Source: Streptomyces radicis
GTDB lineage: Bacteria; Actinomycetota; Actinomycetes; Streptomycetales; Streptomycetaceae
Direction of reading: 5' to 3'
Length of the DNA stretch: 64,000 bases
NCBI RefSeq assembly: GCF_003626575.1
Contig: NZ_RBDY01000005.1
Location: forward strand, 124,001 to 188,000
Both the position numbers and the translations under genes were made by a program. This document shows positions 44,068 through 64,000 of this stretch, piece after piece. Position 1 is the stretch's first letter, and every line of letters begins with the position of its first letter. A model generated the notes under the pieces. That model was not told the DNA's origin. It saw only the letters and a list, made by a program, of their open reading frames with translations, and made no database searches.

Positions 44068-45912
44068 TCAGCGGGGCGTGGGCAGCGTGATGCCGTAGGC
44101 CCGCATCTTGCGGTAGATCGTCGTCCGGGAGATGCCGAGCCGCTGCGCCGCGAGCAGCTTGTTGCCGCCCGCGTCAAGCAGGGCTTCGACCAGGGTGTCG
44201 CGCTCCGCGGTCTCCCACGCGCTCAGGGAGCGGTGTCCGACGGTGTGCAGCGAAGGAGGCAGGTCGCGGGGCTCGACGCGGTATGTGCGGCGGCCCGCGG
44301 CGGCCTTGCGCAGCACGGACTCCAACTGGCCGACGTTGCCCGGCCAGTTCTGGCGGCGCAGCAGGGGCAGCACGTCGGGGGAGCACTCCACGCCCGCTCC
44401 GGTACGCCGGAGCAGACACTCGGCCAGTGCGGGCAGGTCGGCGAGGCGGTGCCGCAGGGGCGGCACCGTGACCGCCTCGACGAAGCGGCGCAGCAGGGAG
44501 TCAGGGACCTCGGGAGCCGGGCCGAGTGTCCCCACGATCCAGGTCCCGCGCGCCGCCGCGGCGGTCAGTGCCTCGGCGACGGCCGACGCCTGCGCGGGGG
44601 CCACGGCGTCGAGGTGCCGCAGCACCAGAGCCCGCCCGGGGCCCGCGGGCGCGGCGCGCAGGGCGTCCGGCAGGGCGTCGGGCCCCGAGTCGCCGCCGGA
44701 GCCCAGGGCCTCGGCGCGGTACCGCGGGTCCGCGGCGTCGAGGACCGCGGGAGCCGATGCCGCGCCGGTGAACGCGTGGGCGGCGCGGGCCAGCGCGGAC
44801 TTGCCCGTCCCCGCCTCGCCGTAGATCAGCAGCGGCACCCGCTCGCGGGCGCAGCGCACCGCGGTCCGTGAGGCGGTGTTCCACGCGGGATCGGCCCCGG
44901 CCAGGCCCGGCAGCGCGCGGGGCCCGGCGTCGGCGGCGGCACCGGGTCCGCCGGAGGAGCGCGTACCGGCCGCCCCGGTGGACGCCTCCGCCGGTGGCCC
45001 GTCGTCGAAGACCAGGTCGAGCAGGTATCCGGCCACGCCCGCCCGGCTGTCCACCCGACGGCAGCGCACCAGCGCGGACGTGCCGCCGGTCAGCCGCACC
45101 CTCCTGCGGGTGCGCGGCGCGTGGCCGAGCTCGGCGGAGGCCTCGCGCAGCAGCCGGTGGTCGTCGCCGGTGAGCCGCTCCGCGGCGGCGGCGTTGGCGA
45201 GCAGCAGGTCATCGCCGATGCAGAGCACGGGCCGGTCGCCGTAGTGCGTCGCCTGCCGGAAGGCCTCGAGCAGGGCGCGCTCGTACGACGTGCTGATCTC
45301 GTACATCACCCGCTCGATGTCGTCGGCCGACTCCTGCGCCAAGGCGGCCATCAAGGAGCTCGCCGGGCCGTTCCAGCAGGTCAGGTTCATCGTGCCGGCC
45401 ACCCGCCCGCTGATCGGATCGCGGATGGGTGAGGCGGCGCACGAGACCTTCTGCAAGCGCTCGTTGAAGTGCTCGGCGCCCAGCACCACGGAGGACCTGC
45501 GCTCCTCGAGGGCGACCCCGATGCCGTTGGTGCCGACGAACTGCTCGGCGTAGCTGAAGCCCGGCGCCAGATGGACACGGTCCAGGTGGGCCATCAGCCG
45601 CGCCTCCCCCACGCGGCGATCACGCACCCAGCCTTTCCGGTCGGTCACGATCACGCAGACATCCGAACCCGCCAACGTCTGCTCAAGCCGGTCGAGAACG
45701 GGCGCCGCCGCGCGCATCAGGTGACTCTCCCGGTCGTAGTCGGGCCGGTAGGGCACGACCACTTCGTCGATGCCGATTCCCAGGAGCTTGGAGCGCTTCC
45801 ATGAGTCGCGGACGCTCTCGGGCACGACCGGCGTCGGTGGCTCCGAGCCCTCGAGGAACTTCAGGCGCGCCCGCGCGATGGTGCGCCCTTGCGCTTCGCT
45901 CTCCATCGGCAT
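44068..45912 (-). CDS. Fis-type activator of the AcoR/MimR group
   Basis: 614 residues. An N-terminal sensory part with a GAF-like domain (VCVIVTDRKGWVRD, GFSYAEQFVGTNGIGVALEE) is followed by a remodelled AAA+ domain: P-loop YGEAGTGKSALARA is present, but the GAFTGA sigma-54 contact loop is missing and the region is rich in Ala/Gly. The C-terminus is a Fis helix-turn-helix (NKLLAAQRLGISRTTIYRKM). Such regulators in actinobacteria control propane, acetone or acetoin genes without sigma-54. It is divergent from the SDR-amidohydrolase-DUF59-ADH genes and is their likely regulator. Confidence 0.9.
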   Translation of the reverse strand: MPMESEAQGRTIARARLKFLEGSEPPTPVVPESVRDSWKRSKLLGIGIDEVVVPYRPDYDRESHLMRAAAPVLDRLEQTLAGSDVCVIVTDRKGWVRDRRVGEARLMAHLDRVHLAPGFSYAEQFVGTNGIGVALEERRSSVVLGAEHFNERLQKVSCAASPIRDPISGRVAGTMNLTCWNGPASSLMAALAQESADDIERVMYEISTSYERALLEAFRQATHYGDRPVLCIGDDLLLANAAAAERLTGDDHRLLREASAELGHAPRTRRRVRLTGGTSALVRCRRVDSRAGVAGYLLDLVFDDGPPAEASTGAAGTRSSGGPGAAADAGPRALPGLAGADPAWNTASRTAVRCARERVPLLIYGEAGTGKSALARAAHAFTGAASAPAVLDAADPRYRAEALGSGGDSGPDALPDALRAAPAGPGRALVLRHLDAVAPAQASAVAEALTAAAARGTWIVGTLGPAPEVPDSLLRRFVEAVTVPPLRHRLADLPALAECLLRRTGAGVECSPDVLPLLRRQNWPGNVGQLESVLRKAAAGRRTYRVEPRDLPPSLHTVGHRSLSAWETAERDTLVEALLDAGGNKLLAAQRLGISRTTIYRKMRAYGITLPTPR

Positions 45913-46140
45913 GACGCCTCCCGGGGACGGTTTCCGTCATATTACGAACGTTGTGCGTGAGCGCAAGATCTCCGGCAACGGCAACGAAAATCGGCGGCCC
46001 GCCGAAGCGGTGGCCACGCGTGTCCGTGTTCCACATTGAAAAAGTCGCCGCCGCCCCACCGCCCCACACTGAGGGGCACGGCAGGCCGCCCTCGCGGGAC
46101 GGCCGCTGCGACGGAGCAGAACCGAGCCGAGGAGCGCCCC
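45913..46140. promoter_or_regulatory. Divergent control region of the Fis-type regulator and the SDR operon
   Basis: 228 bp. A small inverted motif TGTTCCACA (TGT-N3-ACA) lies inside TGTCCGTGTTCCACA near 46020-46034, a possible Fis-regulator site. The patch GAAAATCGGCGG near 45986 and CATATTACGAAC near 45938 are the only AT-rich spots. No boxes are convincing. ATG of the SDR is preceded by GAGGAG. Confidence 0.35.
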
Positions 46141-46935
46141 ATGAATTCCGCCAGCAACGCAGCCCGTACCGCCATCGTCACCGGAGCGGCCCGCGGCATC
46201 GGCCGCGGCATCGCGGAGCGGTTGGCGCGGGACGGCCTCGATGTCGCCGTCGCCGACCTGCCGGGGATGCGTCAGGAGTTGGACGAGGTGGCGGCCGCCA
46301 TCGAGAAGACGGGGCGCCGGGCTCTCGCCGTGGACACCGACGTGACCAGCAAGGAACAGACCGACGCCCTCGTGCGGGAGGTGGCCGAGCACTTCGGCCA
46401 TGTGGACGTCTTCGTGGCGAACGCCGGAATAGCCAGGGTCACCGCGCTGCTCGACACCGGGCTCGAGGAGTTCGAGCAGGTCATGGCCGTGAACCTGCGC
46501 GGCGTCTTCCTCTCCTACCAGGCCGCGGCGCGGCAGATGATCGCCCAGGGAACCGGCGGCAAGATCATCGGCGCCGCCTCGATCGTCGCGTACCGGCCCT
46601 TCGCGCTGCTCGGCCCGTACTCCGCGTCCAAGTGGGGCGTTCGCGGCCTGACGCAGGCCGCGGCCCTGGAGTGGGCGCGGCACGGCATCACCGTCAACGC
46701 GTACTGCCCGGGAATCGTCGGCACCGCCATGTGGGAGCTGATCGACGAGAAGCTGGCGGAGGCCGAAGGGCTCGACAAGGGCAAGGCCATCAAGAAGTAC
46801 GCGGAGTCGATCGCCCTCGGCCGGGTCGAAGAGCCCGCGGACGTGGCTTCCTTCGTCTCCTATCTGGCGTCGCCCGACTCCGATTACATGACGGGCCAGT
46901 CGGTCATGATCGACGGCGGCATCCAGTTCTCCTGA
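46141..46935 (+). CDS. Short-chain dehydrogenase, acetoin reductase / butanediol dehydrogenase-like
   Basis: 264 residues. The NAD motif is TGAARGIGRGIAERL, the structural NAG is VANAGIARV, and the catalytic tetrad shows in AASIVAYRPFALLGPYSASKW. VNAYCPGIVGTAMWELID closely matches the acetoin(diacetyl) reductase / meso-2,3-butanediol dehydrogenase branch. First gene of a four-gene operon with an amidohydrolase, DUF59 protein and zinc alcohol dehydrogenase. The real substrate may be a small diol or ketol made or used by that route. Confidence 0.88.
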   Translation: MNSASNAARTAIVTGAARGIGRGIAERLARDGLDVAVADLPGMRQELDEVAAAIEKTGRRALAVDTDVTSKEQTDALVREVAEHFGHVDVFVANAGIARVTALLDTGLEEFEQVMAVNLRGVFLSYQAAARQMIAQGTGGKIIGAASIVAYRPFALLGPYSASKWGVRGLTQAAALEWARHGITVNAYCPGIVGTAMWELIDEKLAEAEGLDKGKAIKKYAESIALGRVEEPADVASFVSYLASPDSDYMTGQSVMIDGGIQFS

Positions 46936-46936
46936 G

Positions 46937-46975
46937 GCGGGGAATCGACGCGGCGAATCGACGCGGGGAATCGAG
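46937..46975 (+). repeat. Three 13-bp tandem repeats in the SDR-amidohydrolase gap
   Basis: GCGGGGAATCGAC, GCGGCGAATCGAC and GCGGGGAATCGAG lie head to tail. The last copy ends in GAGGAA and so supplies the ribosome site of the amidohydrolase start at 46984. Confidence 0.85.
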
Positions 46976-46983
46976 GAATACGC

Positions 46984-47985
46984 ATGTATACGAAGGACGG
47001 CGAAGACTACTTCATCGTGGACGCGCACATCGCGCTCTGGGACGCCCGCCCCGAGAACCAGCTCAACATCCATGGCAGGCAGTTCATCGACTGCTTCTAC
47101 GACTACCACCGCAACCTGAGCCCGGAGTCGGAGCTGTGGCCCTACGAGGACTACCTCTACTACGGCGGTGAGCGTCTGCTGAAGGACCTCTTCGTCGATG
47201 GACACGTCGATCACGCCATTTTCCAGCCCGCCAGGCTCGGGGCGTTCTACCGCCGCGGCTTCGGGCAGACCGAGGAGGCGTTCGGCCTCGCTCAGCGGCA
47301 TCCCGACAAGCTGACCTACAACCACCACTGGGACCCCCGCTTCGAGCGGGAAGGGCTCGACCAACTCCGGCGTGACGCGGAGCGCTTCCAGCTCAAGGGC
47401 GTGAAGCTGTACACCGCCGAGTGGCAGGGCGCCTCCCGTGGATACAAGCTGGACGACCCGTGGGCCTACCGCTATCTCGAGGCCTGCCAGGAGCTCGGGA
47501 TCACGAACATCCACGTCCACAAGGGGCCGACGATCCGGCCGCTCGACCGGGACGCGTTCGACGTCTCGGACGTCGACAAGGCGGCGACGGACTTCACCGG
47601 CCTGAACTTCGTCGTCGAGCACTGCGGCCTGCCCCGGCTCGAGGACTTCTGCTGGATCGCGACGCAGGAGCCCAACGTGCACGCGGGGCTCGCCGTCGCC
47701 ATGCCGTTCATCCACACCAGGCCGCGGTACTTCGCGCAGATCATCGGCGAGCTGCTGTACTGGCTCGACGAGGACCGGATCCAATTCTCCAGTGACTACG
47801 CGCTGTGGACGCCGAAGTGGCTGATCGAGCGATTCGTCGACTTCCAGATCCCCGAGGACATGCGGGACGAGTACCCGCCGATCACCGTGGCGCAGAAGAA
47901 GAAGATCCTCGGGCTGAACGCCGCGGCCATGTACGACATCGACGTGCCGGCCGGTCTCGGCGTCCCCGAGCCCGCGGGGGCCTGA
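46984..47985 (+). CDS. Amidohydrolase of the propane/phenol-monooxygenase cluster type
   Basis: 333 residues, amidohydrolase 2 fold. The metal motif normally HxH reads VDAHIALWD (His then Ala), a feature to note. Further conserved sequence is NIHVHKGPT, VEHCGLPRLEDF and FSSDYALWTPKW. Proteins of this kind accompany propane and phenol diiron monooxygenase genes in actinobacteria; their chemical role is unclear and some may act in enzyme maturation. Here it follows an SDR instead of monooxygenase subunits. DUF59 gene begins one base after its stop. Confidence 0.85.
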   Translation: MYTKDGEDYFIVDAHIALWDARPENQLNIHGRQFIDCFYDYHRNLSPESELWPYEDYLYYGGERLLKDLFVDGHVDHAIFQPARLGAFYRRGFGQTEEAFGLAQRHPDKLTYNHHWDPRFEREGLDQLRRDAERFQLKGVKLYTAEWQGASRGYKLDDPWAYRYLEACQELGITNIHVHKGPTIRPLDRDAFDVSDVDKAATDFTGLNFVVEHCGLPRLEDFCWIATQEPNVHAGLAVAMPFIHTRPRYFAQIIGELLYWLDEDRIQFSSDYALWTPKWLIERFVDFQIPEDMRDEYPPITVAQKKKILGLNAAAMYDIDVPAGLGVPEPAGA

Positions 47986-47986
47986 C

Positions 47987-48814
47987 ATGCCCGCCGACCC
48001 CCCGCCCGAGCAAGCGGCGCGCGCGGCGCGGGAACGCGCGGCGCTCGCGGCGCTCGACGACGTCCTCGACCCGGAGCTCGACGAGCCGATCACCGACCTC
48101 GGCTTCGTCCGCTCCGTCGCCGTGGCCACCGACGGCGTGCTGACCGTGCACCTCAGGCTCCCGACGTCGTTCTGCGCACCGAACTTCGCGTATCTGATGG
48201 CGTCCGACGCCAAGGACGCGCTGGCGGCGCTGCCAGGCGCCCGCGGCGTCGTGGTGCTGCTCGACGACCACCACGACTCCGAGCTGATCAACCGCGGCCT
48301 GGCCGCGGACGCGGGCTATCGCGGGACGTTCGGCGAGGAGGCGGACGAGGATCTCGACGCGCTGCGCCTGACCTTCCGCCGCAAGGCGCACGCCGCGGCG
48401 ATGGAACGCGCGCTGACCGCCCTGCTCAGGGCGAGACCGGACCTGACCGAGGCGGGACTCCACGGCGTCACCCTGGCCGATCTCCCCGAGACACCGGCGA
48501 CGCGGGCGCTTCGGCGGCGACGTGAGTCCCTCGGGCTGAGCGTCGCCCCGGCGGCCGAGGTGCTCGTGGACGACCAAGGGCATCCGTATCCAGGCCAGGA
48601 GATCCCCCTCCGCCTGCGCTTCGCCCGTTCGGTCCGGATCTCGATCGACGGCAACGCGCACTTCTGCCGCGGCCTGCTGCGCACCCGCTATCCCGGGTCC
48701 GCCGCGGACCAGTCGCCCCGCCCCCACGGCACCGACCGCACCGGATCCACCGACCCCACCGGCCCCACCGGCTCTTCGAAGCTCCGCACGACAGCAGAGG
48801 TGAAACCCGCATGA
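47987..48814 (+). CDS. DUF59 / MIP18-type metal-sulfur assembly protein
   Basis: 275 residues. The N-terminal 90 are a DUF59 domain (LDDVLDPELDEPITDLGFVRSV and LPTSFCAPNFAYLM with the conserved cysteine), as in PaaD and SufT. A second, helical part of 150 residues follows, as in monooxygenase-linked members, and the last 30 residues are a Thr/Gly/Pro run coded by 12-bp repeats. It probably helps insert iron or iron-sulfur centres into a partner enzyme. Its stop overlaps the ADH start (ATGA). Confidence 0.87.
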   Translation: MPADPPPEQAARAARERAALAALDDVLDPELDEPITDLGFVRSVAVATDGVLTVHLRLPTSFCAPNFAYLMASDAKDALAALPGARGVVVLLDDHHDSELINRGLAADAGYRGTFGEEADEDLDALRLTFRRKAHAAAMERALTALLRARPDLTEAGLHGVTLADLPETPATRALRRRRESLGLSVAPAAEVLVDDQGHPYPGQEIPLRLRFARSVRISIDGNAHFCRGLLRTRYPGSAADQSPRPHGTDRTGSTDPTGPTGSSKLRTTAEVKPA

Positions 48815-49836
48815 AGGCAGTCCAGGTCGTCGGCTACGGCGAGCCGCTCCGGATGACGGACGTGCCCGCCCCGAAGGTCACAGCCCCGTACGACGTGATC
48901 GTCAGGATCGGTGGGGCGGGCGTGTGCCGTACCGACATCCACATTCTCGAGGGCCAGTGGGCCGAGAAGTCGGGGGTGACGCTGCCCTACACGATCGGGC
49001 ACGAGAACGCGGGCTGGGTGCACGCCGTCGGCGACGCCGTCACCCATGTCGCCGAGGGCGACAAGGTGATCGTGCATCCGCTGATCACCTGCGGCCTCTG
49101 CCGGGCCTGCCGGTTCGGCGACGATGTGCACTGCGAGCAGTCCCTCTTCCCCGGCATCGACACCGCGGGCGGTTACGCGGAGTACCTCAGGACGTCCGCC
49201 CGCAGCGTGGTCAGGATCGACGACTCCCTCGAACCCGCCGACGTGGCCGCGCTCGCCGACGCGGGCCTGACCGCGTATCACGCCGCGGCGAAGGCGGCCA
49301 GGAGCCTCAGGCCCGGCGACCGCTGCGTCGTGATCGGCGCGGGCGGGCTCGGGCACATCGGCGTGCAGGTGCTGAAGGCGATCACGGCGGCCGAGCTCGT
49401 CGTGGTCGACCGCAACCCCGACGCGGTGAAGCTCGCCGTCTCGATCGGGGCCGACCACGGTGTCGTCGCCGACGGCGGCCAGGTCGACGCGGTGCGCGAG
49501 CTGACCGGTGGTCAGGGGGCCGAGACGGTCATCGACTTCGTCGGCGAGGGCGGCGCGACCAGGGACGGTGTCGGCATGCTGCGCCGCGCGGGCGAGTACC
49601 ACGTCGTCGGCTACGGGGAGAACATCGACGTCCCGACCATCGACATCATCTCGAGCGAGATCTCGTTCATCGGCAGCCTCGTCGGCTCCTACAACGACCT
49701 GTGCGAGCTGATGGTCCTGGCCGCGCGGGGACGCGTGCGCCTGCACACCACCACCTACCCGCTCGAACGCTTCCAGGACGCCCTGGACGACCTCGCCGCG
49801 GGCCGCATCCGCGGGCGCGCGATCCTCACCCCGTGA
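48811..49836 (+). CDS. Zinc-dependent alcohol dehydrogenase
   Basis: 341 residues, medium-chain family. Catalytic zinc ligands are in GVCRTDIHILEG and TIGHENAGWVH; the structural zinc is CGLCRACRFGDDVHC. The NAD fold reads VIGAGGLGHIGVQVLKA. This type oxidises secondary or primary alcohols formed by propane-type monooxygenases (for example isopropanol to acetone). Last gene of the operon and coupled to DUF59. Confidence 0.93.
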   Translation: MKAVQVVGYGEPLRMTDVPAPKVTAPYDVIVRIGGAGVCRTDIHILEGQWAEKSGVTLPYTIGHENAGWVHAVGDAVTHVAEGDKVIVHPLITCGLCRACRFGDDVHCEQSLFPGIDTAGGYAEYLRTSARSVVRIDDSLEPADVAALADAGLTAYHAAAKAARSLRPGDRCVVIGAGGLGHIGVQVLKAITAAELVVVDRNPDAVKLAVSIGADHGVVADGGQVDAVRELTGGQGAETVIDFVGEGGATRDGVGMLRRAGEYHVVGYGENIDVPTIDIISSEISFIGSLVGSYNDLCELMVLAARGRVRLHTTTYPLERFQDALDDLAAGRIRGRAILTP

Positions 49837-50005: not shown

Positions 50006-53000
50006 ATGGCGGGAGCGACGGAACGGGTCTTCGAACGGCTGGTGGCCATCCAGGGGATACACACGCTGGTGGGGCCGTCGTATCCGCTGCCGCCGGGACA
50101 GCGCCGCCCCCTGGCGTTCTTCGAGGGCAGGCACGGCAGCGGCAAGACGCAGCTCCTCGAGGACCTCGCCGCCCTTTGCGACCAGCATGTGCCGTATGGG
50201 CGCGTCGACTTCGCGGAGGCGCGCCACGACGACATCCCGCACACGCTCACCGCGCTGGCCGGACAGCTCGAGCAGTACAGGCCGCGATACGGGCGGCTCC
50301 GCTTCCACCGGCTGCTCATCGGGCTGCTCGTGATGGAGCAGCCTCTCGGCCCGCTCCACTTCGAGCAGGCCCGCGAGGCGGTGGAACGGCTGCTGAGGCA
50401 GCGACGCGGAGGACGTTGGCCCCAGGGGTTCCTGAGCGACCACGGGGGGCAGCCGCCGCAGCTCCAGCTGACGTTCTTCCCCGCCACGCTGCTGCTGTCG
50501 CTCAACGCGCTCAGCGTCCTGACGGGCTTCAGGTTCACCAGGCGCTCGCGACGGTGGTTCGGGCACCGCGACCGGGGGTTGACCGGCGCGGCGGTGGACA
50601 CCCTGGTCGAGCTGAACACCTGGGCATGGGAGGCGCGGCAGAATCCGACGGGATCGCGCGGAGCGGAGGCGAGGGGCCGGGTGGCCGATCTGCTCTGCGA
50701 GGCGTTCCTGGCCGATCTGCGGGACTGCCCGCGGCGGGTGCGCGGGCTCAACACGCCGTTACTCCTGCTGGACAACGTCGACACCCCGGCGGGCCGGGCC
50801 TTTCTGCGCCGCCTGCTCGGGGCCCGCCCGCCGCTCGGCCCCGCCGACCGCGCCGAGCCGTTGACCGTGGTCACCACGGGGCGTGGGCCCCTCCCTGAGA
50901 TGTCCGAAGGGACGGTGGCGGAGTTCGAGGAGGCGCTCGGCGGCTCCCGCCCGCGGGACGCCGCGCATCCGGCGTGGCTCCGCTACCCGCTGCCGGATCT
51001 GACGAGGGCCGACATCCAGCGGCTGATGGACGACGTGTCGAGTCGCGGTCGCGTGGACCGGCGGCTGGCGCGGCTCGTGCACGAGTTCACCGCCGGGCAT
51101 CCGGAGGCGGCCGGTGTGCTGGCCAAGGTGGCGGCGCGCCCGCCCCATCCGGCCGACGGCGTGGGGCAGTTGCTCGCGCGGACCGCGCCCGCCGACGAGG
51201 GGGCCGCCCCCGCGGCAGCCCGGACCGCCGGGGAGTGGCTGCTCTCCCGGCTGCTGCCGGGCCCGGGGTCCATGACCGCCGCCTTCGCCACCTGCGCCGC
51301 CGCGCGGGACGAGACCGGCGGGCTGTGGCTCAGCCACCAGTCGGACCTGGTGGACGCGGCGTGGGGCGACGAGGTGAGGCGCGCGGCCCCCTGGGCGACC
51401 GAGGGCGAGGCCGGGGCCGCCGTGCTGCGGCGGCTGCTGCTGCACCGGCTGGCCGCGCCGGGGCCCGGCCGCCCGGCGGACTGGGCGACCGTGCACGAGC
51501 GGCTGCGCGGCTTCTGCGTCGAACGCGACGACAAGGCCGGGGAGTTGTACCACCGGCTGGCCATGGACGACCTGGCCGGGGTGGCGTCCGAGCTGGCCGC
51601 GCTGCTGCCGACGATGACGGGACAGGAGTGGCTCGACCTGGTGCACAGCACGGCACAGGCGCCCCTCGGCCCCGCGGAGCGGCAGCTCATGGACCCCTAC
51701 GCCCTGTTCCACGCCTGCGTGGACGAGGCGCGGACCGCCTCGCTCGACGCCACGGCGACGCATGTGGTGGACCTCCTCGCGGCCCTGCGGATCGTCGGCG
51801 ACCCGCTGTGCGGCGTCTCACGGGAGTACCTCTACTCCCGGATCACCACCACGTTGAACCTCCTGGACCTCCGGTCGTCCGACGGCCTGGTGGCCGTGCA
51901 GCGGACCGTCACCGTTTACGACGAGGAGAAGCAGTGGTGGACATCGGACATCGATGTCCGGGGACAGGGCCCTGCCTCTTCCACCGCGGCCGTGGTCCCC
52001 GGCTTCAAGAACCCGCCGCGCCACGGGACCGGACAGCGCCTGGTGGCCGCGGGAACGGTCGGCGCGCTGCTCGTCGCGGTGGTGGCGCTCTGGCTGCCGG
52101 ACCGGCTCGACTGCGACCGGTCCGATCTGACCGAGCGCGGCGGCGAGTGCCTGGGGGTCACCGACGGCTCTTTTGCCTTCGTGCCCTCCGGGGAGGCGGA
52201 CCTGGCGGAGGAGTTCAGGGAGGTCCAGCGGCTGATCAAGGAGGAGAACGACCGGGTCGTCGAGCAGGGGGACGCCTCGGTGAAGGTGGGCCTGCTCGCC
52301 ACCCTGACCCCGGATGACACGGGGCCGCAGGCGCCGCGGCGCGTGCTGCACGCGTTGGAGGGCGCGTACACCGCCCAGATGCGCGCCAACCAGACCCGTC
52401 AACTCGGCGATCCCGCCCCGCAGATCCAGCTGCACCTGGCCAACGCGGGCAGCCGCCACGAGCAGTGGGGCCCGGCCGTGGACGGGCTGGTGTCGATGGC
52501 CGACGACAGCGCGCCCCTCGTCGCGGTGGTCGGCCTGTCGATCAGCACCGAGGACAGCAGGGCCGCCGCCCAGCGGCTGGCGGACCACGGCATCCCGGTC
52601 ATCTCCTCGTCGGCCAGCGCGGACGGGCTCAACTCCGAGACCGTCCCCGGGCTGGTCCGCGTCACCGCGAGCAACACCGACTTCGTCACGGCCCTGCGCC
52701 AGTACGTGCGCGGCCGCGAGGGCCTGGACGAGGCCATCCTCGTCTACGACCGGAACGCGCCCGACCTGCATGTGGCCACCCTGACCGAGGCGTTCCGCGA
52801 GCTGATGGCCGACGAGCTCGGCGCCAACCCGGACCAGCCGTTCCAGGGCACCACGGTGGCACCGGACACCCCGGCCGCGCTGTTCGACGCGGCGGTGCTC
52901 AACGTCTGCCACACGGAGGCCGACATGGTGCTCTTCGCGGGGCGCACCGGTGACCTCCACGCGTTCACCGAGTCCCTGCACAATCGCGCGTGCCGGGACG

Positions 53001-53494
53001 AGCCGATCGCGGTGCTGTTCGTGGAGACCGGGCCCGTCGTCGACGCGGGGCAGGAGCAGCGCCTGGCCGAGAACAACATCACCGTCGTGCAGGCGTCCGC
53101 GATGGACCCCGAGTGGGCGCGGAACGTCGACGCCGCGGGCGCGCCCCCCGGCTTCCGCGGCTTCTTCGAGCAGTACGACACCCATGTCCCGTACGCCGAC
53201 GACGTGCCCGCCGCGCTCGAGGACGGCTATGCCGTGGCCAACCACGACGCGCTGGCGACGGCCGTCCGCGCCATCAGGGTCAGCCACGCGCAGGACCCCG
53301 AGGCGCCGATGACCAGCGGGCGCGTGGGCGACGCGCTGTTCCTGCTGAACCTGGGCAACGCGGTGGAGGCCGCGAGCGGCACCCTGCACTTCACGACGGA
53401 CCGCCACGGCGACCCGGGCGGCAAGCCGGTCCCGGTCCTGGAGACCCCGCCCTCCCCGTCCCCGCCCGAGCTCCATGTGACGCCCGTCCCGTAA
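50006..53494 (+). CDS. Single-pass membrane receptor: cytosolic P-loop NTPase fused to an outside PBP type 1 domain
   Basis: 1162 residues, ATG with GGGGGGA upstream. Walker A is GRHGSGKT at residues 41-48, and a Walker B-like strand LLLLDNVD follows near 250. The first 650 residues are helical and resemble a STAND-type NTPase module. One membrane segment lies at about 679-697 (LVAAGTVGALLVAVVALWL). The remaining 460 residues, predicted outside, look like a branched-chain-amino-acid-type periplasmic binding domain (KVGLLATLTPD, ALEGAYTAQM, VAVVGLSISTEDSRAAAQRL, IPVISSSASADGLN). Binding outside could thus gate an NTPase inside. It is a one-gene unit between ADH and arsC with no transporter genes nearby. 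Not a family I can name. Confidence 0.8.
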   Translation: MAGATERVFERLVAIQGIHTLVGPSYPLPPGQRRPLAFFEGRHGSGKTQLLEDLAALCDQHVPYGRVDFAEARHDDIPHTLTALAGQLEQYRPRYGRLRFHRLLIGLLVMEQPLGPLHFEQAREAVERLLRQRRGGRWPQGFLSDHGGQPPQLQLTFFPATLLLSLNALSVLTGFRFTRRSRRWFGHRDRGLTGAAVDTLVELNTWAWEARQNPTGSRGAEARGRVADLLCEAFLADLRDCPRRVRGLNTPLLLLDNVDTPAGRAFLRRLLGARPPLGPADRAEPLTVVTTGRGPLPEMSEGTVAEFEEALGGSRPRDAAHPAWLRYPLPDLTRADIQRLMDDVSSRGRVDRRLARLVHEFTAGHPEAAGVLAKVAARPPHPADGVGQLLARTAPADEGAAPAAARTAGEWLLSRLLPGPGSMTAAFATCAAARDETGGLWLSHQSDLVDAAWGDEVRRAAPWATEGEAGAAVLRRLLLHRLAAPGPGRPADWATVHERLRGFCVERDDKAGELYHRLAMDDLAGVASELAALLPTMTGQEWLDLVHSTAQAPLGPAERQLMDPYALFHACVDEARTASLDATATHVVDLLAALRIVGDPLCGVSREYLYSRITTTLNLLDLRSSDGLVAVQRTVTVYDEEKQWWTSDIDVRGQGPASSTAAVVPGFKNPPRHGTGQRLVAAGTVGALLVAVVALWLPDRLDCDRSDLTERGGECLGVTDGSFAFVPSGEADLAEEFREVQRLIKEENDRVVEQGDASVKVGLLATLTPDDTGPQAPRRVLHALEGAYTAQMRANQTRQLGDPAPQIQLHLANAGSRHEQWGPAVDGLVSMADDSAPLVAVVGLSISTEDSRAAAQRLADHGIPVISSSASADGLNSETVPGLVRVTASNTDFVTALRQYVRGREGLDEAILVYDRNAPDLHVATLTEAFRELMADELGANPDQPFQGTTVAPDTPAALFDAAVLNVCHTEADMVLFAGRTGDLHAFTESLHNRACRDEPIAVLFVETGPVVDAGQEQRLAENNITVVQASAMDPEWARNVDAAGAPPGFRGFFEQYDTHVPYADDVPAALEDGYAVANHDALATAVRAIRVSHAQDPEAPMTSGRVGDALFLLNLGNAVEAASGTLHFTTDRHGDPGGKPVPVLETPPSPSPPELHVTPVP

Positions 53495-53514: not shown

Positions 53515-53928
53515 TCACGTGGTGAGCAGCTCGTCGAGCAGGTCGCGGACGCGGCGTTCGATCGCGTCGCGGATCGGGCGCACGGCCTCGACGCCCTGCC
53601 CCGCCGGGTCGTCGAGCGGCCAGTCGAGGTAGCGCTTGCCGGGGAAGACGGGGCAGGCGTCGCCGCAGCCCATGGTGATCACCACGTCGGACGCCCGCAC
53701 CGCCTCGGTGGTCAGCACCTTGGGGGTCTCGGCGGAGATGTCGACGCCGACCTCGGCCATGGCCGCCACGACGGCGGGGTTGACGGCGTCGGCGGGGGCG
53801 GATCCGGCCGAGCGGACCTCGACGCGGTCCCTGCCGAGATGGGTGAGGAAGGCGGCGGCCATCTGCGAGCGCCCGGCGTTGTGGACGCACACGAACAGCA
53901 CGGACGGGGGCGAGGAGGCGGTGGTCAT
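53515..53928 (-). CDS. arsC: Arsenate reductase, LMW-phosphatase type
   Basis: 137 residues. The P-loop CVHNAGRSQMAAAF holds the nucleophile cysteine and arginine, and TMGCGDACPVFPGK carries the two resolving-type cysteines of the thioredoxin/mycothiol-coupled class. LDWPLDDPAGQG is the usual closing motif. Third gene of the arsR-aquaporin-arsC operon. Confidence 0.94.
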   Translation of the reverse strand: MTTASSPPSVLFVCVHNAGRSQMAAAFLTHLGRDRVEVRSAGSAPADAVNPAVVAAMAEVGVDISAETPKVLTTEAVRASDVVITMGCGDACPVFPGKRYLDWPLDDPAGQGVEAVRPIRDAIERRVRDLLDELLTT

Positions 53929-53955
53929 GGGAAGTCCCTTGCTGGCCCTGGGAGT

Positions 53956-54711
53956 TCAGGGGACGGAAACGGGCGAGGTGGCGGGCTCGGCCGCGCCACG
54001 AGGGGCGGCGGCGTCGGTGTGCGCGGGAGCGGGGCGGCCGAAGAGCGCCGCGACCAGGGCGAGGCCGACCGCCGCGCCGACGAGCTGGGCGGCGACGAAC
54101 GGGGCGACGGAGGCCGGGGCGATCCCGGCGAACGTGTCGGTGAAGGCCCGCCCCACGGTCACCGCCGGGTTGGCGAACGACGTGGAGGAGGTGAACCAGT
54201 ACGCGGCCCCGATGAACGCGGCCACCACGGCCGGTGCCAGGCTCGCGCGCCCGACCCGGGCCAGGCCGATGACCAGCGTGACGAGCCCGGCCGTCGCGAC
54301 GACCTCGCCGAGCCACAGCTGCCAGGCGAACCGGTCCTGGGTCGACCACGCGACGGGCGGCAGGTCGAACATGGCGTTGGCCAGGACCGCCCCGCCGACG
54401 GCCCCGGCGATCTGAGCCGGGACATACGCGGCCACCTGCCGCCTGCCGGGCCCCCGGCCGCCGACGCGGCCCTCCGCCCACGTCGCCAGGGTGATCACGG
54501 GGTTGATGTGCGCCCCCGACACGGGGCCGAGCAGCGCGATCAGCGCGCCCAGCCCGAGGACGGTCGCGAGGGAGTTGGCCAGCAGCCGCACACCGTTGTC
54601 CCCCGACAGCTCGGCCGCCTGGACGCCGGAGCCGACGACCACGGCGACCAGGGCGGCCGTCCCGAAGGCCTCGGCCGCCACACGCCGCGGCAGCGGCGCC
54701 GGGACGCTCAT
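53956..54711 (-). CDS. MIP-family channel of an arsenic operon (AqpS-like)
   Basis: 251 residues with six membrane segments. The two half-helix motifs are GAHINPVIT (NPV instead of NPA) and SFANPAVTV (NPA). Aquaglyceroporins in ars operons let arsenite leave after ArsC makes it from arsenate, replacing the ArsB or Acr3 pump. It overlaps arsR by four bases and is followed by arsC at 27 bp. Tail after residue 230 is Pro/Ala-rich. Confidence 0.92.
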   Translation of the reverse strand: MSVPAPLPRRVAAEAFGTAALVAVVVGSGVQAAELSGDNGVRLLANSLATVLGLGALIALLGPVSGAHINPVITLATWAEGRVGGRGPGRRQVAAYVPAQIAGAVGGAVLANAMFDLPPVAWSTQDRFAWQLWLGEVVATAGLVTLVIGLARVGRASLAPAVVAAFIGAAYWFTSSTSFANPAVTVGRAFTDTFAGIAPASVAPFVAAQLVGAAVGLALVAALFGRPAPAHTDAAAPRGAAEPATSPVSVP

Positions 54712-55082
54712 GCCTCCGCCTCGGCGGCCCGGGGGCGCAGCACGGCGGCCAGCCCCTCCAACGCCTCGGGCAGCACCCGGTAGTAGACCCACGTCCCGCG
54801 CCGCTCGCCGTCGATCAGACCGGCCTGCCGCAGCAGCTTCAGATGGTGGGAGATCGTCGGCTGGGACACCTCGAACGCGGGCGTCAACTCGCACACGCAG
54901 ACCTCGCCGCCCTGCCGCGAGGCGATCAACGACAGCAGCCGCAGCCGCACCGGGTCGCCCAGCGCCTTGAACACCCTCGCCAACTCCCCGGCCCTGTCCT
55001 CGCCGAGCGGCGCGGCGGACAACCCGGGGCGGCAGAAGTCGTCCGCGTCCTGCCCGAGCACCACGAGCTCCTGTTTCGACAT
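54708..55082 (-). CDS. arsR: ArsR-family metalloregulatory repressor
   Basis: 124 residues. Winged helix VFKALGDPVRLRLLSLIA, then the metal motif region EVCVCELTPAF (Cys-Val-Cys) and recognition helix VSQPTISHHLKLLRQAGLI. Arsenite binding to the cysteines should release DNA. First gene of the ars operon, with a candidate operator just upstream. Confidence 0.93.
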   Translation of the reverse strand: MSKQELVVLGQDADDFCRPGLSAAPLGEDRAGELARVFKALGDPVRLRLLSLIASRQGGEVCVCELTPAFEVSQPTISHHLKLLRQAGLIDGERRGTWVYYRVLPEALEGLAAVLRPRAAEAEA

Positions 55083-60053: not shown

Positions 60054-61299
60054 GTGGGGCAGGCACCGAGGGTTCCGGCCGACATGTTCCGGTTCACGAC
60101 GGGCGAGCGGGCGCCGCTCTACAGCGCCGTCCTGCACGCCTTCGGGGAGGCGCACGAACGCCTGGTGACCGCGCTCTCCCTTGACGAGGTGCGGGAACGG
60201 CTGCGCGGCGTGGGGTGGTTCGACGCGCTGGAGGACGACGACCTGGTGGCGGCGTTGCGGCAGCTGCGGGAGTGGCGCCTGGTGGACGCCATGCAGAATC
60301 ACGCGGGGAACTACCGCACGGCGGAGGAGTACGAGCGGCGGAATCTCCAGTACTCCCTCACCCGGCACGGCGAGGCGGCCTTCGCCGGGGTGCAGCACGC
60401 GCTGACCGTGCTCGCGTCATCGGGTGCCCTTCAGACGGCGGTGCTCGACGCGATCGCCGACCGGCTCCACGCCCTCGACGCGCTCCTCGCGGACCCGGCT
60501 TCCGCGAACCGCCGGGTGTTCGCGACCCTTCAGGAGCTGGAAGGGCACCTGGACGCGTTGCGCTCCAACACCAAGCAGTTCAACGGTGAGTTGCAACGCC
60601 TCCTGCACGCCGACGGCGCCGAGCTGCCGCCGCTGGCGGGTGGCGATCCCGGGCCCGCCTGGTCGCAGACGCGGCGGGCCCGCTGGGAGGGGCTGCGCGC
60701 GTGGTTCCTGCCCGAAGACGGCGCGCCCGCCCGGGTGGAGCAGCTGCACCATGTGGCGCGCCGGGCGATCGTGACGCTCCTCCAGTTCCTCGACCGGATC
60801 ACGCAGACGCGGCGCAGGTCCTCGAGCGCGGCGGAGGACTTCCGCGAGTTGGCGCGCTGGTTCGCCGCCGCGCCGTCCGAGGCCGACGCGCACCGGCTCT
60901 GGGCCACCGCGTTCGGCCTCGGCCCGGCCCGGCACGCCCACCTCGTGCACGCCGATCCCGAGACGATGCCCGCGTCGGCGCGTTGGAGCGAGGCACCGCC
61001 CGTCGAGGTGTCGGCGCTGCCGCGCTCGAGCGGGCGAACGGAGCGGTTCACCCGGACGGGCCGGGTGCGGGACGTGGCGGCGGTGCGGGCCGACCGCGCC
61101 GAACGGGCCAGGGCGGAACGGGCCGATCTCGAGGCGGCGTGGAGCCTGCTGCGCACGCGGGGACCCGTCCGCCTCTCGCACGTCGCGGAGCTGGACGACC
61201 CGGCGTTCGAGCGGCTTCTCGACCTGCTCGGCCGGGCGTTGGCGGTGCGCCCCGACGCGGCGGGGCTCAGGCGCGCGGTCACGGGGGACGGCCGGCTCG
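60054..61299 (+). pseudogene. jetA: Wadjet JetA (DUF2397), C-terminal end lost by fusion into jetC
   Basis: About 415 residues of a DUF2397/TIGR02677 protein: FRFTTGERAPLYSAVLHAFGEAHERL at the start, a winged-helix region, ARRAIVTLLQFLDRI and WFAAAPSEADAHRLWATAFGL. In type II Wadjet this is the kleisin-like subunit bound to the SMC ATPase. It runs without a stop into sequence like the middle coiled coil of JetC after GDGRL (about 61299), so its own last few dozen residues and stop are missing. Start GTG at 60054 keeps the conserved VPADMFRF; ATG at 60084 is the alternative. The exact fusion point is my estimate. Confidence 0.75.
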
Positions 61300-62746
61300 C
61301 GGTGGACCGTGCCGAGGCGGACGTCGCCGCCCGCGAGGACTCCGTGCGCGCCGCCGCGTCGCACCTCGCCGGTCGGGAGGGCGACGTGACGCGCGCGGCG
61401 CGCGCCCTCGACTCCCTCGCCGCCGAGTACGGCCTGCCCGCCGACGAGCGGGCCCTCGACCGGCTCGCCGAGCACGCGGAGGCGCTGCGGGAGAGCTCGG
61501 GACGTTGGCTGGTGGCCTCCGGTCCGGCTCGCCGCCCTGGCGCGCGCCGCGGAGGAGGCGGGCAGCCGCGCGGCCCGCGCGCGGCGCGGCGATCACGGCG
61601 CGGGACACGGCGGTCACCCACCGCGACGCGGCCGTCGACCGGCTGCGCCGATGCCTCACCCTCGGCCTCGCCGACGACGCGGGGGCGGCCGACATCCGCC
61701 CCGCGCCCGAGGCGAAGGTGACGGCCGCCCTGGAGTCGGCGCGCGCGGTCTCGGCCCGCTGGCCCTCGGTGCCGCACTCGGCCAAGAACATCGCGGACGC
61801 CTTGGAGCGCCTTGCCGAGACCCGCTACGCCACGGCGCGGACGCTCAGCGACCGCGCCGACATCCATCTGGAGGCGGAGGAGGATCTCCACGTCCTCAGC
61901 GCCTCCATCGACGGCACATCGCTGGGCACCGCGGGCCTCCTCGCCGTGCTGACCGAGGAGCGCGACCGCGGCAGGGACGACATCACCGCCGGCGAACGCA
62001 CCCTGTTCGACCGGATCCTGACCGGAGACACCCGCCGCCACCTCGCCTCGCGCATCCGGCAGGCGAACGAGCTGGTCGACACCATGAACGCCCGGCTCGA
62101 GCGGGTCCGCACCGCGTCCCGCGTCGCCGTGCAGCTGGTGTGGCAGGTCGACCCCGCCCTGCCGCCCGGCACCGTGGCCGCCCGCAACCTCCTGCTGAAG
62201 GACCCCCTGAGGCTCACCGACGCGGACCACGAGGCACTGCACCGGTTCTTCAGGGAACGCATCGAGGAGGCCAGGACCGGCCAGCGGGCGGGCAGTTGGG
62301 AGGAGCAGCTGGCGCAGGTCCTGGACTACACGGCGTGGCACCGGTTCGTGGTCAGGCTCGACCGGGCGAACGGGCAGGGCTGGCAGCTGCTGACGAAGAG
62401 GCTGCACGGCGCCCTGTCGGGCGGCGAGAAGGCCATCGCGCTGCACCTGCCGCTCTTCGCGGCGGTCGCGGGGCACTGCCACACGGTGCCGGAAGCCCCT
62501 CGGCTGATCCTGCTCGACGAGGTGTTCGTCGGCGTAGACGCGACCAACCGCGGACAGGTCTTCGCCCTGCTGTGCTCCCTCGACCTCGATCTGCTGCTCA
62601 CCTCGGACCACGAGTGGTGCACCTACCGCGAGCTGGACGGCATCGCCATCCACCAGCTGATCACCGACGGGGACGACGACGCGGTGACCACGGCCCGTTT
62701 CGTCTGGACCGGCACCGGGCTGTCGTCCGACGAGGCGGCCACGTGA
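61300..62746 (+). pseudogene. jetC: Wadjet JetC (SMC-like ATPase), N-terminal half missing and frameshifted
   Basis: Only the second coiled coil and C-terminal head remain. The head shows RLHGALSGGEKAIALHLPLF (ABC signature) and APRLILLDEVFVGVD (Walker B), as in TIGR02680. The Walker A half, roughly the first two thirds, is absent, as is all of jetB. Sense jumps frame twice: the JetA frame serves to 61523, one extra base leads to RLAALARAAEEAGSRAARAR (61525-61587), and another extra base to AITARDTAVTHRDAAVDRLR from 61589 to the stop. The stop overlaps the jetD GTG. Either true decay or two sequencing slips on top of a deletion. Confidence 0.75.
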
Positions 62747-64000
62747 GCCGACGGACCCGGCACGCCCTCGACCGCCCCGAGCTGGCCCTGCTGTGGCGGG
62801 CGGTCCACGCCCGGCTGTCCTCGGGGCGGCCGGTCAGCCGGGTCACCGTCGGCCCGCTCGACGTCGATGCCCGGCAGGCGCTCGCCGACCTGCTCGGCCT
62901 CGACCGGCTGCCGCGGCCCCGTGCGACGGTGACGTTGGCGCGCCTTGACGAGGCCCTGCGCGACAGCGTCGGCGCCGACGCGCGCGCGGTCGTCGAGGCG
63001 ATCCTTGGCCCGCTCGGCGACCGCGCGGCGGACCGCGAAGCCGACCGGGCCGACCGGGCCGCGCTGTGGGGCTGGCTCGATGCCCACCCCGTGGTCACCG
63101 CCCAGCCCGCGCTCGGCGCCTGGACGGCGCACATGCGCCGTTCGGGGCTGGTCCAGGGCTCGGTCGAGGCCACCCGGCGGCTCCTGGAGCGCGCGCTGAC
63201 CGTCATGGCGGCCCTCCCCGCGCGGGGCGAGCCGCTGCCGGTCTTCGCCACCGCCCACCTCGGCGACGCCCATGCCCTCGACGACGGCACGCGCCTCGCG
63301 GGCGTGGTGCTGCGCGCCCTGGCCGCCCTGCACGACACCGAGCCGCCCGCGTCCGCCGGTGACCGCCGCGCCCTGTGGGGGCTGGCCGGTATCGCCGACG
63401 ACGCCCTGTCCACCACCGTCCTGGTCGCGGGTCTGCGCCCCATGGGCGCCGGGCCCGTCGCCCGCGCGCTCACCGCCTACGCGGACGCGGGGCACGCCGC
63501 GCACGTGTCCCTGGCCCAGCTCCGCGACCCCGGGGAGACGGTGCTTCCTGCGACCGAGGTGCGCGTCGTGGAGAACCCCAGCGTCCTGGCCCTCGCCCTA
63601 CGGCGCTTCGGCCCGCGCTGCCCGCCCCTGGTGTGCACCTCCGGCTGGCCGAACAGCGCCGCCGTGTCGCTGCTGCGCCACCTCGCCTCCGCCGGTGCCA
63701 CCCTGCGCTACCACGGCGACCTCGACGGTGAGGGGCTGCGCATCGCCGCCCATGTGCTCGCGGCCACGGGCGCGCGGGCGTGGCGCATGTCGGCCGCCGA
63801 CTACCGTGCGGCGCAGGCCCGTTCGCCCACGGGCCCGCCACCGGGGCGGGTGACGGAGGCCCCCTGGGACCGCGAGCTGGCCGCCGCTCTGCGGGAACGC
63901 GGCACCGCCGTGCTCGAGGAGCACATGGCCGAGACGCTCCTCGCGGATCTCGCCGATCTCGCCGCCCTCACGGATCCCGCTCACCGGGCGCGCGACGCCC
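62743..64000 (+). CDS. jetD: Wadjet JetD (DUF2399, Toprim-like nuclease subunit), runs off window
   Basis: 419 residues to the window edge with no stop. GTG at 62743 overlaps the jetC stop (GTGA). The N-terminal helical part (LDRPELALLWRAVHARL, then PVSRVTVG) leads to VRVVENPSVLAL, LVCTSGWPNSAAVSLLRHL and LRYHGDLDGEGLRIA, the DUF2399 block with the Toprim-type acidic metal motif. JetD cuts DNA bent by the SMC complex in plasmid defence. The frame is intact as far as seen, in contrast to jetA and jetC. Confidence 0.85.
   Translation, partial: MSRRTRHALDRPELALLWRAVHARLSSGRPVSRVTVGPLDVDARQALADLLGLDRLPRPRATVTLARLDEALRDSVGADARAVVEAILGPLGDRAADREADRADRAALWGWLDAHPVVTAQPALGAWTAHMRRSGLVQGSVEATRRLLERALTVMAALPARGEPLPVFATAHLGDAHALDDGTRLAGVVLRALAALHDTEPPASAGDRRALWGLAGIADDALSTTVLVAGLRPMGAGPVARALTAYADAGHAAHVSLAQLRDPGETVLPATEVRVVENPSVLALALRRFGPRCPPLVCTSGWPNSAAVSLLRHLASAGATLRYHGDLDGEGLRIAAHVLAATGARAWRMSAADYRAAQARSPTGPPPGRVTEAPWDRELAAALRERGTAVLEEHMAETLLADLADLAALTDPAHRARDA

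What the first reader, a model, noticed from the sequence alone, without database searches (positions are those of the whole stretch)
50006..53494. Candidate new receptor class: cytosolic NTPase linked through one membrane helix to a PBP sensor
The layout is P-loop NTPase and long helical region inside, a single membrane segment, and a complete ABC-type ligand-binding domain outside. This is the reverse of a transport role: a binding protein used as a receptor for an inside NTPase, similar in logic to STAND sensors. The effector is not obvious; it could be part of the helical region. It is a lone gene beside stress and defence genes.
Basis: partly seen in the sequence, partly recalled or inferred. 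Interest (0 to 1): 0.75.

Follow-up and report, generated by a model that had tools for sequence, protein, structure and literature searches.

The report
Fused outside-sensing NTPase receptor gene
This Streptomyces gene joins an NLR-like (STAND-type) switch protein inside the cell to a nutrient-binding-type sensor outside it; it appears to be a natural fusion of a common two-gene receptor pair whose two halves also turn up in bacterial immune-type systems.

Summary
In detail: 50006-53494 encodes 1162 residues with a P-loop NTPase, a helical region, one strong membrane helix (679-697) and a complete type I periplasmic-binding-protein (PBP) domain. But the single chain is the exception. In relatives the halves are two adjacent genes: 127 of 132 strong PBP matches in 199 genomes of the genus (the window's own included) have the NTPase directly upstream on the same strand, and only the window's copy is one ORF. 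Its three nearest relatives (51-72% identical by half) are split; the window lacks the stop codon between the genes. The real unit is a two-gene receptor module, fused here. The PBP model matches LivJ (Z 31.5); the NTPase has STAND motifs and superposes on NLR and ORC/Cdc6 ATPases alike. The same PBP family also sits, across one membrane helix, on TIR, TIR plus NB-ARC-like, caspase (with EACC1), EAD1 and Ser/Thr kinase outputs; the same NTPase family also sits in a VMAP-MoxR conflict locus. Best reading: an outside-in ligand receptor working through a STAND-like switch, perhaps in conflict or stress. Ligand and effector are unknown. PBP domains in such systems are in print (Kaur 2020); I found no report of this pair.

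The parts
50006..53494 (+). whole gene: fused NTPase / membrane helix / PBP receptor, 1162 aa
   Evidence: homologues
50108..51145 (+). STAND-like NTPase core (residues about 35-380): Walker A 41-48, Walker B 252-259, sensor-1 region about 286-294, GxP motif TAGHPEA 362-368
   Evidence: model m2af9ef21312a
50126..50149 (+). Walker A, GRHGSGKT
   Evidence: GxxxxGK[ST] intact in 40 of 52 aligned sequences (window included), 10 degenerate, 2 without letters
51146..51940 (+). helical region (residues about 381-645)
   Evidence: model; alignment
51941..52036 (+). linker made from the former intergenic stretch; the stop codon present in the nearest relatives is missing
   Evidence: junction alignment; no stop in any forward frame 51901-52127
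52040..52096 (+). single transmembrane helix, residues 679-697
52097..53491 (+). extracytoplasmic type I PBP (LivJ-like) domain, with four cysteines that are invariant in the 21 sequences of alignment A1

Best explanation
The gene encodes a one-chain version of a two-protein transmembrane receptor. Outside the membrane, a LivJ-like PBP domain binds a small ligand (inferred). Its closure or dimer change is passed through one membrane helix (inferred, by analogy with the ANP receptor) to a cytosolic STAND-like NTPase, which changes nucleotide state and oligomerises, and so engages an effector encoded elsewhere (inferred). In most relatives the NTPase is a separate protein that would have to meet the short cytosolic tail of the PBP protein; here a missing stop codon has tethered the two. 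Shown here: anatomy, predicted folds, gene pairing, fusion, and sharing of both halves with conflict-system modules. Inferred: direction of signalling, ligand, effector, and a role in conflict or stress.
For: Pairing: 127 of 132 strong PBP rows (window included) have the NTPase just upstream, same strand, in 104 of 199 genomes; of 52 loci with strong matches that I opened, 48 are adjacent pairs, 17 of them overlapping and 28 overlapping or at most 6 bp apart. Distances within the two families track each other: Mantel r 0.90 in 46 loci, 0 of 1000 permutations as high (shared descent contributes). Fusion in the window. PBP fold: Z 31.5 to LivJ; Foldseek also lists ANP, mGlu and taste receptors. 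NTPase: STAND motifs; superposes on plant NLRs, CED-4, Dark, Avs3 and ORC/Cdc6 at Z about 10-11.5. Same PBP family on other outputs: kinase, TIR, TIR plus NB-ARC-like, caspase with EACC1, EAD1. Same NTPase family inside a VMAP-MoxR locus. Control: among proteins called in nine Peripla_BP_6 loci of the same genome, one hits the family model, at E 1.2e-5.
Against: No experiment. No effector domain found in the gene. Walker A is degenerate in 10 of 52 aligned NTPases, 6 of them without the lysine, so nucleotide use cannot be essential everywhere. Three full-length NTPases sit at the ccsB/resB locus without a PBP gene (L118-L120). Seven of 91 PBP rows on the tree have neither an NTPase nor a long N-terminal part in my gene calls. 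The NTPase model rests on 12 sequences (pLDDT 76); NLR and ORC rows are tied in Z; profile search of PDB sequences finds only P-loop stretches; Pfam AAA/NACHT hits of relatives stay below their cut-offs. The same sensor family also tops HTH and DUF4062 proteins, so conflict is not the only possible output.
Confidence: 0.6

Rival explanations
1. Transport-related: the PBP still hands a solute to an ABC importer, and the NTPase regulates or docks that importer.
For: LivJ fold; PBPs of this class normally serve importers; NTPase present.
Against: No ABC signature LSGGQ in the ORF. In 45 of 48 pairs no same-strand gene lies within 80 bp downstream. Among neighbours of 20 loci and the window, families found in six or more loci all come from one chromosomal place; a few others recur in two to four loci. 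Neighbours were not all scanned with Pfam, so a permease is not excluded. By eye, a transport PBP of the same genome has permease-like and ABC-ATPase-like neighbours (L046 translations; the Pfam check failed).
Confidence: 0.1
2. Nutrient or cell-wall sensing receptor without any conflict role, in the manner proposed for GlnH-GlnX-PknG: the pair tunes metabolism or development.
For: A solute-binding protein is proposed to signal to a cytosolic kinase in actinobacteria (PMC6069109, abstract read). One group keeps a fixed place beside ccsB/resB genes in 9 of 20 loci, which is unlike defence islands. HTH and kinase outputs occur.
Against: Both halves are shared with TIR, caspase, EAD1 and VMAP-MoxR proteins; the pair is patchy, in 104 of 199 genomes of the genus, and 11 of 20 loci lie elsewhere than the ccs place.
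Confidence: 0.25
3. Inside-out signalling: the NTPase senses an inside signal and the PBP domain is the output part outside.
For: Kaur et al. [quoted passage not shown]
Against: The outside part is a complete LivJ-like binding fold and no enzymatic or lytic domain was recognised in it.
Confidence: 0.08
4. The fusion is an assembly or sequencing error and the organism has two genes like its relatives.
For: In all three nearest relatives the two genes lie in the same frame with one stop codon between them, about where the window has none.
Against: No stop in any forward frame between 51901 and 52127, so a one-base indel cannot hide a gene end; a base substitution would be needed. GC by codon position stays coding-like through the junction, weakest (0.75 at position 3) in one 60-base block.
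Confidence: 0.07

Closest known systems
EACC1-caspase two-gene system ('System 4', Kaur et al. 2020, PMC7159879, section 33 read)
   Same: The paper mentions a membrane helix plus extracellular PBP behind the caspase; locus L122 has EACC1, then caspase-TM-PBP, and its PBP belongs to the window's family (E 5.6e-116).
   Different: The window gene has neither caspase nor EACC1; a STAND-like NTPase takes the inside place.
VMAP-MoxR-vWA ternary conflict systems (same paper)
   Same: In L121 the same NTPase family (E 1.1e-78) forms the C-terminal half of a 1279-aa protein next to a MoxR-like AAA gene and a trypsin-VMAP-C gene.
   Different: The genes next to the window gene are of other kinds; a PBP is present instead.
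STAND NTPases / NLRs (Avs, plant NLRs, CED-4)
   Same: Walker A, Walker B, GxP motif; predicted fold over about 300 residues at Z 10-11.
   Different: Those known to me (recalled) sense inside the cell with repeat domains; here the sensor is an outside PBP and no N-terminal effector was recognised.
GlnH-GlnX-PknG amino-acid sensing (PMC6069109, abstract read)
   Same: Actinobacterial solute-binding protein proposed to signal to a cytosolic protein.
   Different: Lipoprotein plus separate membrane protein and a kinase; no NTPase switch.
PBP-topped receptors: ANP receptor guanylyl cyclase, metabotropic glutamate receptors
   Same: Type I PBP fold outside; membrane helix and signalling inside (recalled).
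   Different: Eukaryotic, other outputs.

Membership tests
STAND NTPase | Walker A GxxxxGK[ST] | tested here: met
   GRHGSGKT in the window; 40 of 52 aligned sequences intact (window included), 10 degenerate, 2 without letters
STAND NTPase | Walker B hhhhD[DEN] | tested here: met
   LLLLDN in the window; the D is present in all 52 aligned, next position mostly N
STAND NTPase | GxP motif after the NTPase core | tested here: met
   TAGHPEA in the window; G-x-P in 46 of 52, GRA in 5, GHW in 1
STAND NTPase | sensor-1 hhhToR and N-terminal hhGRExE motifs (recalled) | tested here: inconclusive
   loose patterns found in 22 and 21 of 52; window lacks a clear hhGRExE
STAND NTPase | NBD-HD-WHD fold | tested here: inconclusive
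   NLR, CED-4, Dark and Avs3 at Z about 10-11, but ORC/Cdc6 at up to 11.5 is tied
type I PBP (LivJ class) | two-lobed fold | tested here: met
   Z 31.5, rmsd 3.3, 341 residues, to 4gnr
type I PBP (LivJ class) | binds a ligand in the cleft | not testable with these tools
   needs a binding assay
ABC importer component | ABC signature in the ATPase | tested here: not met
   no LSGGQ-like motif in the ORF
ABC importer component | permease encoded nearby | tested here: inconclusive
   no third gene kept with the pair; neighbours not all scanned
EACC1-caspase System 4 | EACC1 gene upstream and caspase domain | tested here: not met
   no caspase hit in the ORF; upstream gene is a zinc dehydrogenase
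VMAP-MoxR ternary system | MoxR, vWA and VMAP genes in the locus | tested here: not met
   adjacent genes are dehydrogenase and arsenic-type genes
anti-phage defence system in PADLOC | match to a PADLOC model at E 0.001 | tested here: not met
   best is mad8 at E 0.0075 for the window, PtuA at 0.013 for a relative

The most novel reading that the evidence does not exclude
Streptomyces and related actinobacteria carry a family of cell-surface immune-type receptors in which one venus-flytrap (PBP) sensor cassette is plugged, through a single membrane helix or as a separate gene, onto the same outputs that animals and plants use in innate immunity (STAND/NLR, TIR, caspase). The window gene is a one-chain 'surface NLR': a STAND switch that looks outward, sensing a small molecule from phages, rivals or dying neighbours.
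Probability: 0.35. Interest if true: 0.85.

Novelty: new variant of a known kind. Interest (0 to 1): 0.62.

Why it matters
The bacterial STAND sensors known to me look for signals inside the cell (recalled). A STAND-like switch tied to an outside ligand-binding domain would let a filamentous bacterium start a conflict response before entry, or in answer to a neighbour's chemical signal. The pair is common (104 of 199 genomes of the genus by strong matches), so a ligand screen on a stand-alone PBP protein is a direct and cheap test. The natural fusion predicts that the two separate proteins in other species touch.

Tried and rejected
Sequence search of solved structures with the whole protein found nothing at E 1; with family profiles the PBP finds Leu/Ile/Val-binding and glutamate-receptor proteins (best E 1.1e-6), while the NTPase finds only P-loop stretches (best E 2.8e-4 to a P-loop protein; an NLRP9 at 0.29). 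NCBIfam found nothing. PADLOC gave only weak hits. No match in 50,697 phage records; 4 of 72,556 plasmid records match, all in the PBP part only; the best one shows no annotated feature there. Of 198 genomes drawn from the phylum, 4 have the NTPase at E 1e-20, all in the same class, three in the genus including the window's own. I looked for a third gene: an upstream same-strand gene within 40 bp occurs in 2 of 47 (L038 and L073, alike by eye), and a downstream one within 80 bp in 3 of 48, all different.

Considered and dropped: ABC importer (no LSGGQ). 'One gene, one receptor' as the general design. An effector in the helical region: the model shows helices and no enzyme fold came up, but this part was barely tested alone. 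Foldseek's first NTPase rows (HslU, TM-score to query 0.17-0.20, rmsd 14-21 A) were not used as kin. I did not map LivJ ligand contacts onto the window, because the residue numbers would have come from memory.

Literature: eight listings seen. Read: PMC7159879 sections 20 and 33 and passages, PMC8195603 passages, PMC6069109 abstract and outline. What I read of these does not describe the NTPase-PBP pair; only open-licence PMC papers are held, so this is a limited negative.

Sampling notes: L021-L040 were picked from the rows, L066-L085 for long open frames so as to find other fusions, L086-L105 and L127-L146 as weaker PBP matches; none is a random sample. In L086-L105 no protein reaches the strong NTPase score. 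One search uses the 132 listed PBP rows down to E about 1e-94; weaker rows were left out. L069's print was cut but it is counted. L021, L111 (incomplete) and the window were left out of the Mantel test. On the tree only PBP matches with E below 1e-35 were used, so L137 (E 8.1e-30) is not on it, and the label 'pseudoNTPase_fused' was given by a rule (more than 150 residues before the PBP and no named domain), not by homology in each case. Gene calls are from my own simple caller.
Full report
1. What is there. Window 50006-53494 (+) is one open frame of 1162 codons. Pfam gives only a sub-threshold Peripla_BP_6 match, NCBIfam none and PDB sequences none. Residues 1 to about 645 carry a P-loop NTPase and a helical region, 679-697 one membrane helix, and the rest an outside domain. 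Of 52 PBP proteins shorter than 560 aa a helix was detected in the first 80 residues of 49; the 15 residues before it carry mean charge +2.2 and those after -0.7, and before exceeds after in 43 of 49, which fits N-inside, C-outside. Four cysteines are invariant in 21 PBP sequences, as suits an exported domain.

2. The one-chain form is a fusion. In one search, 32 of 61 genomes have a match, often in two pieces. Opening loci showed two genes in a fixed order: an NTPase, mostly 590-750 aa (478 and 553 in two incomplete calls), then a membrane-helix PBP protein of 443-547 aa. All 20 loci picked are such pairs; 17 of 20 loci picked for long open frames are (the other three, L080-L082, are PBPs with another N-terminal part in one chain); and 11 of 12 loci from named genomes are (L117 has no NTPase). 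Of these 48 pairs, 17 overlap and 28 overlap or are at most 6 bp apart. In 199 genomes of the genus, 127 of 132 strong PBP rows, the window's own among them, have an NTPase match just upstream on the same strand, in 104 genomes. The five without are two P-loop-less fusions (L080, L081), one similar-sized fusion (L124), the caspase protein (L122) and L123, whose upstream gene overlaps the PBP gene by 4 bp but is only 353 aa and misses the NTPase profile. A fused frame needs at least about 1030 codons; 19 of the 132 rows reach that, and the 18 besides the window were all opened: 16 are split pairs and two are L080 and L081.

3. How the fusion arose. The nearest relatives are Streptomyces sp. SBT349 (60% and 71% identical in NTPase and PBP), MUM 2J (55%, 64%) and S. 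triticirhizae (51%, 67%), all split. In all three the two genes lie in the same frame with one stop codon between them; the window reads through the same place. No stop occurs in any forward frame from 51901 to 52127, so a single-base indel cannot explain the open frame. A natural fusion of two genes usually means that the products work together (general inference).

4. The PBP half. The model (13 sequences, pLDDT 83) aligns with LivJ, LivK and other type I binding proteins, Z 26.7-31.5 in the 50 rows shown; Foldseek also lists the ANP receptor, glutamate receptors and the sweet receptor. The family is separate from ordinary PBPs: of the proteins called in nine Peripla_BP_6 loci of the same genome, one hits the family model, at E 1.2e-5, while all 91 rows of the tree score below 1e-35.

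5. The NTPase half. Walker A is intact in 40 of 52 aligned sequences (window included), degenerate in 10 (6 lack the lysine) and without letters in 2; the Walker B aspartate is in all 52 and G-x-P in 46. Looser STAND motifs (hhGRExE-like, sensor-1 arginine; recalled) were found in 21 and 22 of 52. The model (12 sequences, pLDDT 76) superposes on ORC/Cdc6 at up to Z 11.5 and on NRC3, Sr35, another plant NLR resistosome (6j5t), Avs3, Dark and CED-4 at about Z 10-11 over about 300 residues; these are tied, so fold alone does not separate STAND from ORC-like. Sequence profiles find only P-loop stretches in PDB. A further group of relatives has a version of this domain joined directly to helix and PBP; of 37 proteins with more than 150 residues before the PBP match, one (L132) has GxxxxGK[ST]. 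Profile comparison of seven of them with the NTPase gives 98.7% probability, E 2.3e-16 over 269 columns.

6. Both halves are shared with immune-type modules. The same PBP family sits, after one membrane helix, behind a Ser/Thr kinase (L082, L128), TIR_2 (L096), TIR_2 plus an NB-ARC-like NTPase (L132; NB-ARC 19.2 of 23.5 bits, below its cut-off), caspase with an EACC1 gene just upstream (L122), EAD1 (L137, PBP at E 8.1e-30), HTH_31 (L091) and DUF4062 (L097, L127, L133, L134). On a tree of 91 PBP domains the caspase PBP is sister (98) to the PBP of an NTPase pair from the same genome, and the HTH form, one kinase (L082) and three fused forms (L080, L081, L124) lie on the side of the tree that holds all 48 pairs; the pair label needs at least 7 changes. 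So partners have been changed several times. The TIR, L128-kinase and DUF4062 forms are on the other, more distant side. Independently, the same NTPase family forms the C-terminal half of a 1279-aa protein beside a MoxR-like AAA gene and a trypsin-VMAP-C gene (L121); its N-terminal part looks vWA-like by eye, but Pfam names none.

7. Mechanism. Committed view (0.6): ligand outside, PBP closure or dimer change, one helix, STAND-like switch inside, unknown effector. That the output is a conflict or stress response is less sure. Shown: parts, pairing, fusion, sharing. Inferred: ligand, direction, switch, effector. Results against it: degenerate P-loops in part of the family; three NTPases at the ccsB/resB locus without a PBP gene (L118-L120); 7 of 91 PBP rows without a recognised partner; a group with a fixed chromosomal place in 9 of 20 loci, which looks like housekeeping rather than defence.

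8. Known or new. Kaur et al. 2020 mention TM-PBP as a C-terminal domain of caspase proteins in the EACC1 system; locus L122 is such a case and its PBP is of the window's family. The two-gene NTPase-PBP pair, its fusion here, and the TIR/NB-ARC-like/EAD1 relatives were not found in eight listings of open-licence papers. I rate it a new variant of a known kind.

9. Distribution. PBP family at E 0.001: 160 of 199 genomes of the genus (155 of 194 good ones) and 49 of 246 genomes drawn from the class; some of these are weak matches. Pair by strong matches: 104 of 199. NTPase at E 1e-20: 4 of 198 genomes drawn from the phylum. No phage record. Pairs outside the genus were seen in Nocardiopsis, in three genomes of the same order (L021, L035, L037) and one of another family of the class (L085).

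Noticed in passing
window 60084-63999: Incomplete Wadjet type II locus: JetA2 (TIGR02677), only the last quarter of JetC2 (TIGR02680 positions 1017-1353 of 1356) and JetD2 (TIGR02679); the three called genes abut, so JetB and most of JetC have no room and the locus looks deleted.
   Followed up: partly
window 53515-55082: Arsenic-type set on the minus strand directly behind the gene: arsenate-reductase-like phosphatase, MIP-family channel, ArsR regulator.
   Followed up: partly
window 44068-49836: Upstream catabolic-looking cluster: Fis-type regulator, SDR, an unnamed 333-aa protein (amidohydrolase-like by eye), an iron-sulphur-assembly-like protein, zinc alcohol dehydrogenase.
   Followed up: partly
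L132 3375-6941: TIR plus NB-ARC-like NTPase plus membrane helix plus PBP in one 1188-aa protein: a TNL-like protein with an outside sensor.
   Followed up: partly
L137 4016-6451: EAD1 (effector-associated domain 1) joined to membrane helix and PBP.
   Followed up: no
L097, L127, L133, L134: DUF4062-TM-PBP clade in one other family of the class, on a long branch of the PBP tree.
   Followed up: no
L118, L119, L120: Full-length NTPase genes at the usual ccsB/resB locus without a PBP gene next to them.
   Followed up: partly
L038 12696-13502 and L073 3618-4301: A third gene of 268 and 227 aa, alike by eye, overlaps the start of the NTPase gene by 4 bp in these two loci only.
   Followed up: no
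L047 1432-3543 (own genome): A 703-aa protein that looks like a Ser/Thr kinase by eye, in the frame of an ordinary Peripla_BP_6 match that misses the window's PBP family; kinase-PBP fusions may have arisen more than once.
   Followed up: no
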